40,022 nucleotides of DNA from Haloquadratum sp. (GTDB taxonomy: Archaea > Halobacteriota > Halobacteria > Halobacteriales > Haloferacaceae), in contig JAQCNF010000001.1 in assembly GCA_028275165.1 (NCBI GenBank), positions 1 through 40,022 of the forward strand, written 5' to 3'. Below, in pieces: positions 154-38,381 of the stretch. The notes beneath the pieces were generated by a model. It did not search any database. It was not told where the DNA came from and saw only the letters and a program-made list of their open reading frames with translations. Numbering within the stretch: position 1 is the first letter of the stretch; each line of letters begins with the position of its first letter. A program made the translations under genes and the position numbers.

Positions 154-299
154 CACTCTTTGATATATTGATCAAGTGGTGATTTAACTCTTGCAGGCTC
201 AGTCGCTTCCTCAAGAGACGAACCGAAACAGTGGTTTCGGTGAGTGAGTAGAGAGGGAATACAGCCGTACGCTATTGCCGACAAAGCAAAATGGAAGTC

Positions 300-7670: not shown

Positions 7671-7746
7671 GGGCTAGTAGCTTAGACGGGCCCAAAGCGT
7701 CTGGCTTTTAACCAGAAAATCGAGGGTTCAAATCCCTCCTAGCCCG
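7671..7746 (+). tRNA. tRNA-Lys (anticodon UUU)
   Basis: The full cloverleaf is visible. The acceptor GGGCTAG pairs with CTAGCCC (7739-7745) and the discriminator is G. The D arm is GCTTAGACGGGCCCAAAGC, the anticodon stem TCTGG/CCAGA has loop CTTTTAA (anticodon TTT), and the T arm is GAGGG-TTCAAAT-CCCTC. There is no intron and CCA is not encoded, as is normal for archaea. A tnpB relic on the other strand begins right at its 3' end. Confidence 0.97.
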
Positions 7747-9599: not shown

Positions 9600-10176
9600 T
9601 TATGTTATAGCTAACTCTGCAGAAATAAAACTATTACCGGCACAGCCGTTTGATACCGAACAGATATATCATTCATCTTGAGTGGTAGTGACGATACACA
9701 TATGATATCCCGCCTCAATCTGCTGGATTGAATGAGCGATAGATATCACCCGAGAGATTAGCGATATCTCTCCTGCATGTGCGAAATTAATCTCGGACGA
9801 TATACCTAGCTGGGCCACCAGTGAGTCGTGTCCGTACGGTCACAGTCTCCCGAGAGCTTGCGTTGCGTGCGGCAGAGTCGTTCGTACTCGTCTTCTCAAG
9901 CCAGCCTACGGTCGCTCCATCGCTGTCTTTTGATTAAATTATTGTGATTTGATAGTTTATGTCACAAGCTGTCGGCTTTATTCCCAAGGTCAAGCCTCAG
10001 GCAGTTGGCTTCTTTTGATAAAAACTTGGGAGAGGGGGTCTCCCAAAGGGGGGAAAGGCGGGCATGATCATACCTGATACACTCAGACATATTCTTGTAT
10101 CGGGTACGACTAACCCATGAAGATGATTCTTTGGATACGATAAAAATCTATTGGTTCGACCTATTGACAGCTTACA
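9600..10176. other. Intergenic region with transposon left-end relics and a hairpin
   Basis: No gene is recognised. Near 9985-10003 is CCAAGGTCAAGCCTCAGG, a degenerate copy of the tnpB-element left-end hairpin. At 10026-10046 is TTGGGAGA/TCTCCCAA with a GGGGG loop, a GC-rich stem-loop that could end transcription or be another IS remnant. The right edge is the target-site duplication of the next element. Confidence 0.5.
10169..10176. repeat. Target-site duplication, left copy (AGCTTACA)
   Basis: This octamer directly precedes the left TIR and is identical to the copy after the right TIR. It marks the insertion point. Confidence 0.93.
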
Positions 10177-10193
10177 GGCTCTGTTGAAATCCT
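10177..10193 (+). repeat. Left terminal inverted repeat of the IS
   Basis: GGCTCTGTTGAAATCCT, with no mismatch to the reverse complement of 11673-11689. Confidence 0.93.
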
Positions 10194-10286
10194 ATTTTTC
10201 GGACACAAAATGGGCTGAGACAGCTGATCGCTGAAGAATACGTATGTAGCACGACTGCATTCACAACTTAGTGATCTGCCCGGTAT

Positions 10287-10721
10287 TCATGCGACCGGAC
10301 GAGATTTTCTGGCAACGAATCGGTGTCCCCAACGGAGGATGACGCCGGCCACAAACGCGATGACGCCAAGTAATAACGCCAACGGAACCCACATCTCCCA
10401 CGCTCCGACTCCACCGAACGATAGTGGAAGCGCTATGGGGGATTGCTGGTCAAGGTAGAGCCACCAATAGTAGGTCAGTCTGGCGACCACCGGTGCCATC
10501 ATGAGGGTCATGCTGACTGCGAGCCCACTATTGTCATAGGCCCACCAGCTCGCCAGTCCGAACCCGACAATGACGAGCCCTGGTTCAACGATTGCACCCA
10601 CAGTAAGCGGCAAGAGCGAAATGACCAGAACGAGTGCGGACACTCCTGCCGCCACAAGAACTCCCTCTAACGACTGCTTCCAGTCGCCTCCGACCAGTGC
10701 GGTGCGGAGGTCAATTTTCAT
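10287..10721 (-). CDS. Passenger integral membrane protein inside the IS
   Basis: A 144-aa protein from ATG 10721 (MKIDLRTALVGGDWKQSLEG). An in-frame upstream extension to 10799 is open but reads as spacer. Four hydrophobic helices are visible at about residues 20-45, 48-62, 66-90 and 110-130, with a basic C-terminal tail (RKSRPVA). MKIDLRTALVGGDWK resembles the starts of many haloarchaeal multi-span membrane proteins of unknown function. It lies 94 bp downstream of the transposase stop on the same strand and wholly inside the TIRs, so it moves with the element. Its base composition is richer in GC than the flanking host DNA. It is not a transposase or a known IS accessory protein. It could be an immunity-like or stress factor, but nothing supports a specific role. 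Confidence 0.75.
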   Translation of the reverse strand: MKIDLRTALVGGDWKQSLEGVLVAAGVSALVLVISLLPLTVGAIVEPGLVIVGFGLASWWAYDNSGLAVSMTLMMAPVVARLTYYWWLYLDQQSPIALPLSFGGVGAWEMWVPLALLLGVIAFVAGVILRWGHRFVARKSRPVA

Positions 10722-10815
10722 ACGCCCTCTCCAGTTGTGAAGGGTAAATATCTTGTTCAGACCAGATGTACGGTAATGCCGACGACTTGTTGTATCCACT
10801 CTCTGTATTGGCCGT

Positions 10816-11568
10816 TCAGAGTGATCGGTCGATATTGTGACTAAGACAAGCGATAGTTAGTTCACGGAACTGCTTCCACCAGCGTCGTGACCGGACGAAG
10901 GCACCGTACTTCCGCTTGAGCGTTGAGTTAACCGTCTCTGATTGACTCCGCTGGCCGTAGAGATCGGTATTTAAACGCGCGTTCCATGCCCGGTGGAGTG
11001 GCGTGAATTCACGATGCTTAATCAGTGGCCGAACCTCATGTTGCCGGGCAAGCCGTCTGATTTTCTGGTCGTCGTAGCCCTTGTCACCGAGCAGAATGTC
11101 AATACTCTCGGGGGTGCGCTTGATCAACGACGGAGCAATCTGGCTATCGTGTTTCCGCGTCGTCGTCACGTGTAAATCGAGAGTCGCGTTTACCTTCGCA
11201 TCGACCAGCAACGTCACTTTGAGCTGTTGAATCGTGAGTTCAGCGCGTTTCGTGTAGTGTTTCGAAGCGTGACCGCGGTCGAACCCCGACGCATCAACTC
11301 CAACAACGCCGCTCGTCGGAAGTAGCGTCGCAGAGAGAGTCAATAAGATCCGCCACACAGCCATATCAAGCCGATTGAACGCCTTACAGAGTGTTGAAGC
11401 CGCAGGAAGTTCGGATAAGCCAATGGTTCGACGGATGCGTGGCATCTCGATCAGTTCGTCAAGCAGACCACGATAGGTCGTGTTCTTCCGAACTTTGAGC
11501 CAGAGCAGAACAACGTGCTGCGGGAGTGTATAGCGGTGTTTAGAAAATTTCGAGGAGTATCGAGACAC
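10816..11568 (-). CDS. IS5-family DDE transposase (start codon probably lost)
   Basis: A DDE transposase with the triad in order: first Asp in VGVDASGFDRG, second in LLGDKGYDD and Glu in SQSETVNSTLKRKYG, the Y-x2-R-x3-E-like region of IS5. The longest ORF with a usual start begins at GTG 11568 (SRYSSKFSKHRYTLPQH), which drops the first helix. The frame is open 23 codons further upstream, where IEALPKSQILRFTEKAVHL is encoded. Relatives begin M-x-ALPKSQILRFTEKAVHLARRAVSRYSSK, so the ATA at 11637-11635 is probably a mutated ATG. The enzyme may be made poorly, from GTG 11568, or not at all. The rest of the frame is intact. Confidence 0.88.
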   Translation of the reverse strand: MSRYSSKFSKHRYTLPQHVVLLWLKVRKNTTYRGLLDELIEMPRIRRTIGLSELPAASTLCKAFNRLDMAVWRILLTLSATLLPTSGVVGVDASGFDRGHASKHYTKRAELTIQQLKVTLLVDAKVNATLDLHVTTTRKHDSQIAPSLIKRTPESIDILLGDKGYDDQKIRRLARQHEVRPLIKHREFTPLHRAWNARLNTDLYGQRSQSETVNSTLKRKYGAFVRSRRWWKQFRELTIACLSHNIDRSL

Positions 11569-11672
11569 TGCTCGGCGGGTCAGATGGACCGCTTTCTCAG
11601 TAAAACGGAGAATCTGCGACTTTGGGAGGGCCTCTATTCCGTGGAATTACATAATGAACATATAACTCCTTG

Positions 11673-11689
11673 AGGATTTCAACAGAGCC
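11673..11689 (-). repeat. Right terminal inverted repeat of the IS
   Basis: AGGATTTCAACAGAGCC, the exact inverse of the left TIR. It is followed by the second AGCTTACA copy at 11690-11697. Confidence 0.93.
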
Positions 11690-11697
11690 AGCTTACA
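11690..11697. repeat. Target-site duplication, right copy (AGCTTACA)
   Basis: Identical to 10169-10176. Together they restore one uninterrupted octamer if the element is removed. Confidence 0.93.
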
Positions 11698-12221: not shown

Positions 12222-13574
12222 TTAGAAACTCCGGCTCAGATAAGAGGTATCCACTTCACCATTGTCAGTTGACTGCTCGCACTCGCTTCGTTTAACCTCA
12301 AGATATGACTGATGCAATGTATCGCCAAGTGCTTCGGCTAACACAGCATCTGTTTCAAATGCATCAAGGGCTTCATCCAATGATTCTGGCAACCGAGTGA
12401 TTCCTCGATTTGAGAGGACCTGATTATCGATATCTGATGGATCCGTATTAATTGGCTCACCAGGGTCAAGTTCGCGTTCTATACCATCGATTCCAGCTGC
12501 TAAGAGTCCCAACTGAGCGAGATAAGGGTTATTCGTGTTATCTGACGGTTTAAATTCAACCCGTGTTTCGGCTTCTGGAGTCTCGCTACTAACAGATGGC
12601 ACACGAACCATCGCTTCACGGTTATCATGTCCCCAACACGTATAGGCTGACGCCCACATCCCTGGGGTAAGTCGGTCATAGGATTCGACCGTCGGAGCAG
12701 TCAATGCAACGAGTGCTGGGGCGTGCTTGAGCAACCCTGCAATGAAGTGTCGACCAGCATCGCTGAGGGGATAACGACTATCTGCGGATGGATCATACAT
12801 TCTGTTCTCGCCATCCTGCCATAGCGACAGATGAATATGACATCCTGTTCCGGGGAGATTCGGGAATGGATTTGGCCGGAAAGTAACGCCAACATCGTGT
12901 TGATGTGCGACACCTTTTATTGTTTCTTTGAACAGTATCTGTTCATCAGCTGCGGTCAGGCCACTCGCATGGTCAATAACCAGTTCCTGTTGACCTGGAC
13001 CATACTCGGGGTAATATGCTGCAAGGCCCATTCCCTGAGACTTCAGCGCATCAACTGTCTCAAGGATAAGTTCGTGAGCACTCCGCATGCCATCGGTTGA
13101 GAAACACGTGGTCTGATCCATCGGGACCGTCTCCCCACGCTCAGTCTTATCGGTGTAATAAAATTCGCTTTCGAATGATAACTGCGGTGTGAGGCCGTCT
13201 GCGCCGATTTCCCGAAGGTACTCACCAAGTCGTGCGCGAGGACCAGCATCCCAAGGGTTACCATCAAGATCGTGCAGGTCGGCCAGCATAATCGCCGTAC
13301 GGTCATCGTAAGGAAGTTCGGTAAAAGTATCTGTGTCAGGGACAACACGAACCTCGCCTGCAGGACCATACTGTCCATCCGGGGCGAGTCGATCAAGCGC
13401 ATTGAACGATTGCATAGCCTGTGTCACATTCGCACCATCTTCAAGCACACCAGGCAGTTTCTCGGAATCCACGACGCGTCCACGAGGGACACCACTATTA
13501 TTAACGAATACAATCCGAACCAATTCAATATTATTTGCATCGACACGGTGGCGGATATTATCTGATTCGGTCAT
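12222..13574 (-). CDS. Glutamine-synthetase-like ligase, probably gamma-glutamyl-amine type
   Basis: A 450-aa type I GS fold protein. Catalytic landmarks are present: FESEF (E135, E137), EYGPGQQE (E190, E197), GTGCHIHLS (H246, H248), DNREAMVRVP (R319, R324) and RVEFKPSDNTNNPYLA (E340 near 338-353). The N-terminal GVPRGR (28-33) is typical of GS relatives such as gamma-glutamylputrescine synthetase (PuuA), FluG and GlnT. The position usually held by Arg in EFRPSD is Lys here. There is no adenylylation-type context. Ligation of glutamate to an amine other than ammonia is therefore more likely than bulk ammonia assimilation, but this is not proven. The start is ATG 13574, with TCTTAACAG about 28 nt upstream, consistent with a leaderless mRNA. 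A further in-frame start at 13622 is less likely. Confidence 0.8.
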   Translation of the reverse strand: MTESDNIRHRVDANNIELVRIVFVNNSGVPRGRVVDSEKLPGVLEDGANVTQAMQSFNALDRLAPDGQYGPAGEVRVVPDTDTFTELPYDDRTAIMLADLHDLDGNPWDAGPRARLGEYLREIGADGLTPQLSFESEFYYTDKTERGETVPMDQTTCFSTDGMRSAHELILETVDALKSQGMGLAAYYPEYGPGQQELVIDHASGLTAADEQILFKETIKGVAHQHDVGVTFRPNPFPNLPGTGCHIHLSLWQDGENRMYDPSADSRYPLSDAGRHFIAGLLKHAPALVALTAPTVESYDRLTPGMWASAYTCWGHDNREAMVRVPSVSSETPEAETRVEFKPSDNTNNPYLAQLGLLAAGIDGIERELDPGEPINTDPSDIDNQVLSNRGITRLPESLDEALDAFETDAVLAEALGDTLHQSYLEVKRSECEQSTDNGEVDTSYLSRSF

Positions 13575-13815
13575 ACGAATGCATGACAGCCCGGAGCTGT
13601 TAAGAGCGGTGTATACCGGCAAAGCTGTGGAGACACTTATGACGAGACGCTCATGTCAGTGACCTCTAAACTGTGAGATTGGATACCAGGAGAGACTAAT
13701 TGTGAGTGAGGAAAATGAGCAGTCCACAGCCGTTAATTACCCGTTTCCGAATTGGCAACACAGCGAAGCGAGCAAGGTGAGGTGGGGTAGTTCACACTGT
13801 ATTACTGTGGCGCGT

Positions 13816-15755: not shown

Positions 15756-17123
15756 TCATTGTATCCAGTATGTCTTTGTATTGGTGAATTCCCGAATACC
15801 ATGCCGAGAGAGTTCAGATCCATATCCGGAACTCTTTATACCGCCAAACGGGACGCGTGGATCTGATTTTGACATCTCGTTAATATATACTGCACCAGCC
15901 TCAATACGCTCAGCGACGTGTCGACCTCGTTCACGATCCTCAGTCCAGATTGATGCGCTGAGCCCATAGTCGGTGTCGTTCGCTGCCTCAATTGCTTCTC
16001 TCTCAGATTCGACTTCAACAACCGTCGCGACTGGGCCGAACAACTCCTCCGTACGGGCCGGACAGTCAGGGGGGACATCTGTGAGCACAGTTGGGGGATA
16101 ATAGAATCCCTTCCTGTCGAGTGGGGCTCCCCCGCACCGAAGCGTTGCCCCGGCATCGATACTCGATTGGACCTGCGTGTGAAGTGTTTCGATAAGATCC
16201 GCTCGGGCCTGTGGCCCTATCTCCGTCGTGGCTGTCAAAGGGTCACCAACACTCAATTCTGTCATCCCATCGATAAACTCCCTGAGAAAATTCTCATACA
16301 GATCAGTGTGAACGAACAATCGCTTGGCAGCGATGCAAGATTGCCCAGAATTTTGTGTTCGTGCAGCAACGGCTGTTTCAACTGCTGCATTCATATCTGC
16401 GTCATCAAGCACGATATATGGGTCACTGCCACCCAATTCAAGAACGGTGTGCTTAATATGACGACCAGCGATCTCTGCAACAGCACTTCCCGCCCGGGTG
16501 CTCCCGGTCAGCGTCACTGCCCGGACGCGGTCGTCTGCAATCATCTTTTCCACACGGTCGGTTTCAATACGGACGGACTGAATCAATTCTTCAGGATACC
16601 CAGCAGATTCGAAAATCTCAATGATTGCATCAGCACAGCCAAACGTTGTTGGTGAATGTTTCAACACGACCGCGTTGCCAGCCGTCAGTGCTGGGACAGC
16701 AAATCTAAATGCCTGCCAAAAGGGATAGTTCCACGGCATAATAGCTAATACCGGTCCTAATGGCTCATACCCAACGTACGATTCCACGCCTGGTTCAGTG
16801 CCGATTCGTTCGTCTTGGAGATGCTCAACTGCGCGCTCGGCATAGTACTCACACAGCCATGCGCATTTCTCTATCTCACTGGTACCCTGATCAACCGGTT
16901 TCCCCATCTCACGGGCCATCAACTGCGCGAACTCATGCTTTTGCTGGTGCAGTATTGGAGAAAGTGCCGCTGCTAATTTTTGTCGTGACTCGATAGACTG
17001 GTCTGCCCAGTCACCGAATGCCTCAGCCGCACTCGTGAGTGTTGCTTCGACAGCTGCCTCGTCATGCGGTTCATATGTTTCAACTCGTTCGCCGTTCGCT
17101 GGGTTGGTGATTTCAAATGTCAT
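15756..17123 (-). CDS. NAD(P)-dependent aldehyde dehydrogenase, succinate-semialdehyde type
   Basis: A 455-aa ALDH with catalytic Cys263 ([11 protein letters not shown]), Glu229 ([10 protein letters not shown]), the oxyanion-region Asn in MPWNYPFW (129-136), GSTRAGSAV (207-215, cofactor fold) and ELFGP near the C-terminus. [22 protein letters not shown] resembles the YneI/Sad subgroup of succinate-semialdehyde dehydrogenases, which are about 455-460 aa, so the protein is full length. Such enzymes oxidise semialdehydes to dicarboxylates (for example GABA-derived semialdehyde to succinate). Its own promoter is not obvious. It is the natural last oxidative step if the GS-like ligase channels amines. 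Confidence 0.9.
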
Positions 17124-21989: not shown

Positions 21990-22200
21990 CAACAAGAGAG
22001 GGGAGACAGCCGTACGCTATTATTACCGACACATAACGAATGCGGTTTCTAAGCAGAATGAGTGGTTCAGGAAGCGTTCCGGTGCCGAGTGACACTTGAG
22101 GACGCGGCCACTGGCGAGACTGCGCTCGTTGTGAACACAAACGACTCGGTGAGGTGTCTGTAGAGTGCGTCATCGAAGTAAGAAACTCCCAGGTTCGATT
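21990..22200 (+). pseudogene. tnpB: N-terminal tnpB fragment, paralogue of the relic at 244-420
   Basis: CAGCCGTACGCTATT and downstream sequence (GAAGCGTTCCGGTGCCGAGTG, then ACTTGAGGACGCGGCCACTG, GAGACTGCG) match 258-390 in order and spacing. The reading VQEAFRCRVTLEDAATGETAL corresponds to VEEAFQY...LEDATTAETAW of the first relic. It is a short remnant of the same TnpB family with nothing of the nuclease core left. Confidence 0.6.
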
Positions 22201-37250: not shown

Positions 37251-38381
37251 TCACAGCTCCATCATTCGGTCCATGGCCACAGCAGCCAACTCCTTTGTCT
37301 CGGGATCAACGCTGATGACGTTACGTTCTCGCTCCTCAACCAGTTCCTCTAAGACCCATGCGAGATAGTTCGGGTCAATCTGGCGCATCGCGTTACAATC
37401 CATACAGGCATCTCCGCAAAGCGGAATAACATTCACCTCGGGATTCCACCGATCCAAATGATTAGCAAGGTGAATCTCAGTTCCGATTGCCCATGTTTCG
37501 CCAGCCTCAGCATTTTCCACAGTCTCAGTGATTGTCGCCGTTGATCCAACCACATCTGCAGTTTCAACAACCTCACGACGACACTCTGGGTGGGCGATGA
37601 CGTTCGCTCCAGGATGAGTCGCGCGAACCTCCTCAGCGTGGTGCTTCCTGAATCGTTCATGCACCTGACAGTATCCCTCCCAGAGAATGATGTCGTTATG
37701 AACAGCTTTCATGGCGTCTTTGGATTCGGGGTCCCATGGGTCCCACTCGACAATCTCTTCGGACATCCCTAACTCGTGTGCAGTATTTGTGCCGAGGTAT
37801 TTGTCTGGCAAGAATAACACCTTCTCGCCGCGGTCAAATGCCCACTCAAAAGCATCAGCCGCATTCGAAGACGTGCAGACTAATCCGCCCTGCTCCGCAC
37901 AGAATGCTTTGAGGTCGGCATACGAATTCATGTATGTTATTGGAACGATAGTGTCGTCAGTAACCGCGGTCAATTCAGCCCATGCAGCGTCCACCTGAAG
38001 TGCCTCCGCCATTCCTGCCATCGGACACGATGCCTCCATTGATGGGAGGATAACCGACTGAGAGTCATCAGTAATAATATCTGCTGATTCAGCCATGAAC
38101 GTCACTCCCCCAAAGATAACATAGTCAGCGTCCGTCGCTGCAGCTTCCTTTGAGAGGCCATATGAATCGCCAATAAAGTCAGCATGTTCGACAATTTCGC
38201 GGCGTTGGTAATTGTGACCTAAAATTACAACATCGTCACCGAGCGTGTCGAGCGCAGCCTCGATGCGCTCTGTCCGTTCAGATTGGTTCAGATTTCGATA
38301 CTCTCGTGGCAATTGCTCTAAGTTGTCATACTTGAACAGGCTCAAGTCCGTCTCAAACTCTGCGGTTTCCATCTCTGGCAT
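37251..38381 (-). CDS. nadA: Quinolinate synthase NadA
   Basis: A 376-aa [4Fe-4S] enzyme that condenses iminoaspartate with dihydroxyacetone phosphate to quinolinate. Three conserved cysteine regions are visible: MEASCPMAG, GLVCTSSNA and the GDACMDCNAMRQ region, which together would ligate the cluster. GHNYQRREI and GDSYGLSKEA near the start and SYADLKAF and HPECRREV in the middle are family motifs. The start is ATG 38381 (MPEMETAEF), with an alternative internal Met three residues later. First gene of the nadA-nadB pair. A clear TATA box was not found close upstream, so the mRNA probably has a leader. Confidence 0.97.
   Translation of the reverse strand: MPEMETAEFETDLSLFKYDNLEQLPREYRNLNQSERTERIEAALDTLGDDVVILGHNYQRREIVEHADFIGDSYGLSKEAAATDADYVIFGGVTFMAESADIITDDSQSVILPSMEASCPMAGMAEALQVDAAWAELTAVTDDTIVPITYMNSYADLKAFCAEQGGLVCTSSNAADAFEWAFDRGEKVLFLPDKYLGTNTAHELGMSEEIVEWDPWDPESKDAMKAVHNDIILWEGYCQVHERFRKHHAEEVRATHPGANVIAHPECRREVVETADVVGSTATITETVENAEAGETWAIGTEIHLANHLDRWNPEVNVIPLCGDACMDCNAMRQIDPNYLAWVLEELVEERERNVISVDPETKELAAVAMDRMMEL

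What the first reader, a model, noticed from the sequence alone, without database searches (positions are those of the whole stretch)
10177..11689. IS5/ISH1-like element with a passenger membrane-protein gene
Perfect 17-bp TIRs and a perfect 8-bp target duplication (AGCTTACA) define a 1513-bp unit that contains not only a transposase but a 144-aa four-helix membrane protein on the same strand. ISH1-group elements normally carry one gene in about 1 kb. A compact IS moving a membrane protein is a minimal cargo transposon; the cargo might confer a selectable trait such as immunity or stress tolerance. Composition of the passenger differs from the host DNA.
Basis: partly seen in the sequence, partly recalled or inferred. 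Interest (0 to 1): 0.72.

Follow-up and report, generated by a model that had tools for sequence, protein, structure and literature searches.

The report
Haloarchaeal jumping gene with cargo slot
This is a small jumping DNA element that carries an extra membrane-protein gene; in its lineage of salt-loving archaea the copies whose two ends could be found all carry extra DNA, usually a different gene each time and often for the cell surface, so the lineage looks like a natural gene-delivery vehicle.

Summary
Window 10177-11689 has perfect 17-bp inverted repeats, the 8-bp duplication AGCTTACA, an IS5-type transposase and a 144-aa membrane-protein ORF on the same strand. The same pair sits at another site, with its own duplication, in a second genus (1503 bp, passenger 93% identical): the passenger is cargo.

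The wider result: of 166 transposase copies examined, 133 have both ends (73 with exact octamers) and none is bare. Slots of 305-2454 bp fall into 99 DNA clusters and lie between about 16 bp after the transposase stop and a conserved ~66-bp distal end. Small membrane proteins dominate (42 of 85 longest ORFs have two or more predicted helices). A related lineage (46-48% identity) is bare, 936-937 bp, in the 5 of 9 copies that could be delimited. Two cargos are shared across separate transposase lineages. One element keeps a fossil of its old end beside the transposase, then cargo, then a new end, suggesting capture by end-skipping. Transposase-less cassettes occur, one in this genome.

Closest known: transporter ISs and bacterial IS231/MIC231. 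A new variant of a known kind; capture route inferred, cargo function unknown.

The parts
10177..11689 (-). whole element, 1513 bp (transposase and cargo both read on the minus strand)
   Evidence: perfect TIRs and octamers; second unit with the same content in G063
10169..10176 (.). target-site duplication, left copy AGCTTACA
   Evidence: read
11690..11697 (.). target-site duplication, right copy AGCTTACA
   Evidence: read
10177..10193 (.). left (distal) terminal inverted repeat, 17 bp
11673..11689 (.). right (proximal) terminal inverted repeat, 17 bp
10177..10242 (.). conserved distal end module, about 66 bp
   Evidence: conservation falls to background after 60-70 bp in 39 elements; lineage versions
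10287..10721 (-). cargo: 144-aa membrane protein, start ATG, stop included
   Evidence: 93% identical relative inside the G063 unit; dN/dS 0.22-0.38 in six pairs of four homologues
10729..10750 (-). possible start signals of the cargo: GGAG at 10732-10729 and TATTTA at 10750-10745, the latter about 27 bp before ATG
   Evidence: read by eye in the sequence printed, where L023 has both as well; no promoter test was made
10799..10818 (-). stop codon of the transposase and the conserved post-transposase module (about 16-20 bp)
10816..11568 (-). transposase ORF from GTG, 250 aa
   Evidence: DDE_Tnp_1
11569..11637 (-). 23 further in-frame codons; first codon is ATA where 132 of 133 TIR-bounded copies have ATG
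11638..11689 (.). proximal end, 52 bp

Best explanation
The window element belongs to a haloarchaeal IS5-type lineage in which carrying cargo is the rule. The transposase recognises a proximal end (52 bp) and a conserved distal end of about 66 bp, and moves whatever lies between the transposase stop and that distal end as one unit with an 8-bp duplication (boundaries and repeated movement shown from anatomy; transposition itself not assayed). Cargo is probably captured when the element's own distal end decays and the transposase pairs its proximal end with a matching end further out (of a MITE, a transposase-less cassette or another copy): the DNA between becomes cargo and the old end erodes. 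Cargo later passes between lineages, presumably by recombination (both inferred from fossils and mosaics). In this copy the cargo is a 144-aa membrane protein kept by purifying selection, possibly with its own start signals. What it does is unknown; the bias to membrane and lipoprotein cargo suggests genes that alter the cell surface or transport, which is inference.
For: Same unit at two sites in two genera with different octamers. 133 of 166 copies TIR-bounded, 73 with exact octamers, 0 bare, 99 cargo clusters; copies with different 5' octamers in 21 clusters, in 7 of which at least two copies have exact duplications (one of the 7, L122/L158, is alike through a nested element). Slot borders at fixed distances. 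Bare related lineage in 5 of 5 delimited copies (of 9), cargo again in 3 of 3 delimited copies (of 11) of a 65-68% lineage; tree support 100 for the split (quick tree). Shared cargo in separate lineages: L169/L130 and L172/L217, AU p 0.00018 and 0.00035. Old-end fossils in L091, L098, L165. Membrane bias 42 of 85 against 1 of 32 annotated plasmid genes and 29 of 62 against 5.5 +/- 2.1.
Against: End-skipping rests on three fossils, only one of them long, and the transposase of that one (L091) has an in-frame TGA, so its last move may have needed help in trans. The window copy shows no such fossil. 60 of the 133 bounded copies lack a matching octamer, so some of their far ends may belong to other elements. 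For window and L023 the trees do not reject sister transposases (p 0.609 and 0.527), so their mosaicism rests on dS alone (0.50 against 0.08). No short direct repeats mark the slot borders, which leaves the exchange reaction open. Hydropathy on longest ORFs is a rough gene call, and a codon-model caller found host-like genes in only 33 of 99 slots.
Confidence: 0.75

Rival explanations
1. A single accidental transporter IS: one IS copy trapped one host gene, and the case has no wider meaning.
For: Transporter ISs of that sort are known (PMC3129680 and PMC7986276, passages). In the window's own genome this is the only full-length copy.
Against: 0 bare copies among 133 bounded ones and 99 different cargos; a related lineage is bare.
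Confidence: 0.07
2. The slot is filled because movement or persistence needs the cargo: small membrane proteins act as an accessory or addiction function for the element, with unrelated genes as replacements.
For: Many cargos are 55-70 aa with two predicted helices, and no bare form was seen.
Against: Cargos are mostly unrelated to each other (99 DNA clusters), and others are enzymes, transporters, lipoproteins or regulators. The related bare lineage moves without cargo.
Confidence: 0.1
3. Neutral by-catch: ends and MITEs are so common that any transposase copy sooner or later spans host DNA, and cargo is random, without benefit or selection.
For: Solo end-like matches are frequent (at least 20 of the listed rows), some slots hold nested elements, and some have no clear gene.
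Against: Membrane and lipobox-like ORFs are well above two controls, and dN/dS of the window cargo family is 0.22-0.38 (three of the six pairs involve only copies outside the element or across it, so part of this reflects life outside the element).
Confidence: 0.25
4. Cassette exchange by a site-specific recombinase, as in integrons.
For: Cargo moves while both neighbouring modules keep the lineage version in L169/L130.
Against: No short direct repeats at the borders in 47 elements (0 with 8 bp or more; inverted 3, control 1). Attachment sites with secondary structure and a recombinase gene were not looked for.
Confidence: 0.06

Closest known systems
IS231 / MIC231 of the Bacillus cereus group (IS4 family); passage of PMC2266710
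   Same: Extra DNA with different passenger genes between one TIR and the transposase, modular build, and transposase-less mobile insertion cassettes.
   Different: Other transposase family and domain of life. There a 'significant fraction' of members carry extra DNA; here 133 of 133 bounded copies do. [quoted passage not shown]
Transporter ISs (tIS); passages of PMC3129680 and PMC7986276
   Same: An IS with a passenger gene unrelated to transposition inside its ends.
   Different: The examples in those passages are single members (ISDsp3 in the IS6 family); here it is a lineage-wide habit with a defined slot.
Haloarchaeal ISH28-like IS5 elements
   Same: Related transposase (46-48% for the copies tested, 47% for ISH28), similar ends, 8-bp duplications.
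   Different: Bare, 936-937 bp, in 5 of 5 delimited copies of 9; ISH28 itself was not delimited here.
ISEcp1 (passage of PMC10100714)
   Different: Other family and 5-bp duplication (that passage gives 5 bp); here the new ends look like true end modules of related elements.
Tn7-like transposons (abstract of PMC8649781)
   Same: 96% carry cargo.
   Different: Other transposition machinery and much larger elements (recalled).
Passenger gene Hlac_3088 of Halorubrum lacusprofundi (passages of PMC10544981)
   Same: Surface protein with PGF-CTERM beside a transposase, proposed there to hinder virus attachment; probably, but not shown to be, the cargo in L080 (PGF-CTERM).
   Different: One case. L080 has no matching octamer, and strain DL31 has the gene with another transposase upstream.

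Membership tests
IS5 family | DDE_Tnp_1-type transposase | tested here: met
   PF01609, E 2e-16; plasmid relatives are annotated as IS5 family, ISHxa2 and ISHla2 among them
ISH1-like group of IS5 | 8-bp target duplication and related short TIRs (group features as recalled) | tested here: met
   8 bp here and in 73 copies
ISH1-like group of IS5 | one gene in about 1 kb (as recalled and as the finding states) | tested here: not met
   1513 bp with a second gene; delimited copies 1176-3325 bp
ISH1-like group of IS5 | place in ISfinder's own classification | not testable with these tools
   ISfinder is not available
Transporter IS (tIS) | passenger gene unrelated to transposition inside the ends of an IS | tested here: met
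   definition from passages
IS231/MIC231 | IS4-family transposase | tested here: not met
   nearest named relatives are annotated IS5; a few deposits of relatives say 'IS4 family', so the test rests on annotation
IS231/MIC231 | transposase-less cassettes with the same ends | tested here: met
   5 of 78 distinct units, at least two with a plausible ORF
ISEcp1-type capture | use of another end beyond the element's own distal end | tested here: inconclusive
   fossil old ends in L091, L098, L165; no assay
Integron gene cassettes | short direct repeats at the two borders of a cassette | tested here: not met
Integron gene cassettes | structured attC sites and an integrase | not tested
   not searched for

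The most novel reading that the evidence does not exclude
A haloarchaea-wide IS5 lineage works as a dedicated gene-capture and exchange system, an archaeal functional counterpart of integron cassettes built from one transposase and two end modules: its slot is always filled, cargo passes between lineages, transposase-less cassettes and spare ends form the pool, and the main currency is small membrane and surface proteins, plausibly for virus evasion or surface adaptation.
Probability: 0.3. Interest if true: 0.82.

Novelty: new variant of a known kind. Interest (0 to 1): 0.62.

Why it matters
ISs are usually treated as genes that move only themselves. Here an IS lineage with close relatives in 58 of 95 sampled genera of one archaeal order carries extra DNA in every copy that could be delimited, mostly a different gene each time. 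It offers a concrete route for gene sharing among haloarchaea, a set of clean one-gene experiments and, through the fossil ends, a directly testable answer to how an IS acquires a passenger. The membrane and lipoprotein bias, and a published suggestion that one transposon passenger may hinder virus attachment (PMC10544981, passages), make surface adaptation a testable idea.

Tried and rejected
Considered and set aside: wrong boundaries around a host gene (second unit with its own octamer); chance ends (0 in the shuffled control); short border repeats (none). A codon-usage gene caller trained on host genes called only 33 of 99 slots; it was replaced by longest ORFs with two controls. Within those 33, 9 had at least two helices against 2.5 +/- 1.4 expected, and lipobox-like starts showed no excess (2 against 1.6). 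Passenger: no match in Pfam, PADLOC, PHROGs or NCBIfam; none in the plasmid or viral collections; one genome contig. Its fold has mean pLDDT 54, so no fold search was made. The Halorubrum lacusprofundi cargo in L080 resembles the published Hlac_3088 but is not counted as proof of function. I listed ORFs around two of the passenger's homologues and drew no functional hint from them. The careful tree did not finish, so its support values are those of the quick tree.

Literature: ten searches listed nothing in the held library whose title or abstract start describes this lineage's cargo slot; most listed papers were not opened. Of PMC3129680, PMC3119063, PMC7986276, PMC10544981, PMC10100714, PMC2266710 and PMC6542083 I saw passages; of PMC8649781 abstract and outline. 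Two reviews wanted were not held. ISfinder is not available, and its records may already note passengers of single elements.

Full report
CHECK. The element at 10177-11689 has 17/17 complementary ends and the octamer AGCTTACA on both sides. Its transposase matches DDE_Tnp_1; the passenger ORF 10287-10721 encodes 144 aa on the same strand. In the window's genome (73% complete) it is the only full-length copy; two partial matches exist. The codon at element position 53-55, ATG in 132 of 133 TIR-bounded copies, is ATA here, so this copy may start at GTG 11568 or be poorly active.

SAME UNIT ELSEWHERE. Of 170 genomes of the family, 13 (own included) hold a passenger relative at E <= 0.001. In one of another genus (G063) the relative (93% aa) lies in a 1503-bp unit of the same order, with perfect ends and its own octamer. 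In the order, 15 of 392 genomes (own included) have a relative at E <= 1e-4, one in another family at 74%; four of the new ones were looked at and have no such ends within about 1.5 kb. Six pairs among four homologues give dN/dS 0.22-0.38: a real, constrained gene.

THE LINEAGE. Transposase relatives occur in 93 of 170 family genomes at E <= 1e-60 and in 126 of 392 order genomes, 58 of 95 genera, at E <= 1e-110. Both match lists were cut by the tool. This gave 166 copies of at least 60% identity: 73 with both ends and an exact octamer, 60 with both ends only, 22 without a distal end found, 8 at contig ends, 3 without a proximal end. None is bare, by a test that allowed 7 mismatches in the far end within 200 bp; slots are 305-2454 bp, median 620. 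They form 99 DNA clusters, 76 of them single. In 21 clusters copies have different 5' octamers, and in 7 of these at least two copies have exact duplications (one of the 7 is alike through a nested element), so units move with their cargo. A named example is Natrinema salinisoli: a 3079-bp unit with equal octamers and three annotated genes beside a transposase whose frame looks shifted.

ANATOMY. In 39 elements conservation falls to background about 16 bp after the transposase stop and 60-70 bp from the distal tip. Two main transposase lineages, A (window-like, 54 of 133) and B (59 of 133; 20 unassigned), have recognisable versions of both modules; 20 elements pair a transposase of one lineage with a distal module of the other.

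CONTRAST. In a related lineage at 45-48% identity, 5 of 9 copies could be delimited; all five are 936-937 bp, with the end 40-41 bp after the transposase frame. In a 65-68% lineage 3 of 11 could be delimited, with slots of 754, 1734 and 1839 bp. A quick, midpoint-rooted tree separates the bare lineage (9 rows) from the other 121 rows with support 100. The cargo habit is thus a property of a clade.

WHAT IS CARRIED. Of 99 slots, 85 have a longest ORF of up to 250 aa: 42 with two or more hydrophobic segments, 52 with one or more, 13 with a lipobox-like start; in octamer-delimited slots 27, 34 and 7 of 53. Of 32 annotated plasmid genes of similar size the numbers are 1, 3 and 0 (Fisher p 8e-7 for two or more). 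An earlier count gave 29 of 62 against 5.5 +/- 2.1 in length-matched flank ORFs. I scanned 30 chosen or larger cargos one by one: 21 matched a Pfam family (one below its cut-off), among them RibD_C, SnoaL, PAS/histidine kinase, archaeal pilin, periplasmic binding protein, PHO4, TrmO, TrmB, DUF5615, LMW phosphatase, O-methyltransferase, TehB-like, alpha/beta hydrolase, formate/nitrite transporter, PALP, GNAT; seven of those 21 lie in elements without matching octamers (L115, L117, L118, L134, L153, L180, L195). In 42 others, mostly small membrane proteins, 10 families had one match each.

CARGO MOVES BETWEEN LINEAGES. L169 (A) and L130 (B) share cargo at 94% DNA while their transposases are 74% alike; L172 (A) and L217 (B) share a stretch at 89% with transposases 72% alike. 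In L169/L130 the modules on both sides of the cargo fit their own lineage; in L172/L217 the distal ones do, and L217 has more DNA on the transposase side. Only L217 of the four has matching octamers. AU tests on a 39-row set reject sister transposases in both pairs (p 0.00018, 0.00035). For window and L023, dS is 0.50 in the transposase and 0.08 in the cargo, with the step near the transposase end, but trees do not reject sister transposases.

HOW CARGO MAY BE CAPTURED. Of 96 slots under 2 kb, 8 hold an internal end-like stretch; shuffled slots none in 5 rounds. In L091 the transposase is followed at once by the inner module fused to a whole distal end with an altered tip, then about 700 bp of cargo, then a distal end of another type, with exact octamers outside: an empty-slot element that skipped its own end. 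Its transposase has an in-frame TGA. L098 and L165 keep shorter relics. A search for that junction in 170 genomes lists two near-full-length matches, L091 itself and a remnant in G022 with 26 transposase codons (the query is A-type, so B-type empty slots could be missed), while at least 20 listed rows match the end module alone, some of them ends of elements counted above. Spare ends are therefore at hand. Of 78 distinct TIR+octamer units in 1.26 Mb, 5 have no transposase: one of 799 bp in this genome with a four-segment membrane ORF (7 of 8 octamer bases equal), one of 354 bp with a 58-aa two-segment ORF, and three of 125-398 bp without a clear gene.

SHOWN AND INFERRED. Shown: boundaries, lineage, slot, diversity, contrast, mosaics, fossils. 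Inferred: end-skipping as capture route, recombination as exchange route, benefit to hosts, surface role.

COMPARISON. A tIS by definition, but lineage-wide. It works like IS231/MIC231 (PMC2266710, passage) without being a member. Capture resembles that of ISEcp1 (PMC10100714, passage). Tn7-like transposons, 96% of which carry cargo (PMC8649781, abstract), are larger and multi-protein (recalled). A passenger surface protein of Halorubrum lacusprofundi has been proposed to hinder virus attachment (PMC10544981, passages); its link to this lineage is likely but unproven.

Noticed in passing
G000 contig C75:2096-2894 (L227:1501-2299): A 799-bp transposase-less unit with perfect 17-bp ends in the window's own genome, with a 191-aa ORF of four hydrophobic segments; octamers GTTCATCA/GTTCATCG.
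   Followed up: partly
L105 and L112 (G046); L100, L102, L107: Copies of one 1193-bp element have mismatched octamers, and the 3' flank of L105 equals the 5' octamer of L112; L100, L102 and L107 share one 3' flank across two genomes. This looks like rearrangement between copies.
   Followed up: no
L102 (G120) and L177 (G194): The same 1193-bp element has the same 5' octamer ATAAATCG in two genomes of different families, as if one insertion and its surroundings had been shared.
   Followed up: no
L080:3855-6750 and L269:2487-5391: A 2905-bp stretch with a PGF-CTERM surface-protein gene is 99.7% identical between G120 and strain DL31, with different transposases upstream.
   Followed up: partly
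L093, L122, L140, L158: Slots that hold further genes which look like other transposases (by eye; in L140 a second IS5-type frame at 42% identity): the slot is itself a landing place for other elements.
   Followed up: no
L187 and L196: The same cargo with two types of distal end; in L196 the stretch next to the new end still begins like the end in L187, a possible case of end replacement.
   Followed up: partly
window 12222-13622, 15756-17123, 37251-38381, 7671-7746: Host genes around the element: glutamine synthetase, aldehyde dehydrogenase, NadA and tRNA-Lys.
   Followed up: no
window 250-276 and 21995-22021: A 27-bp direct repeat (93%) 21.7 kb apart, unexplained.
   Followed up: no
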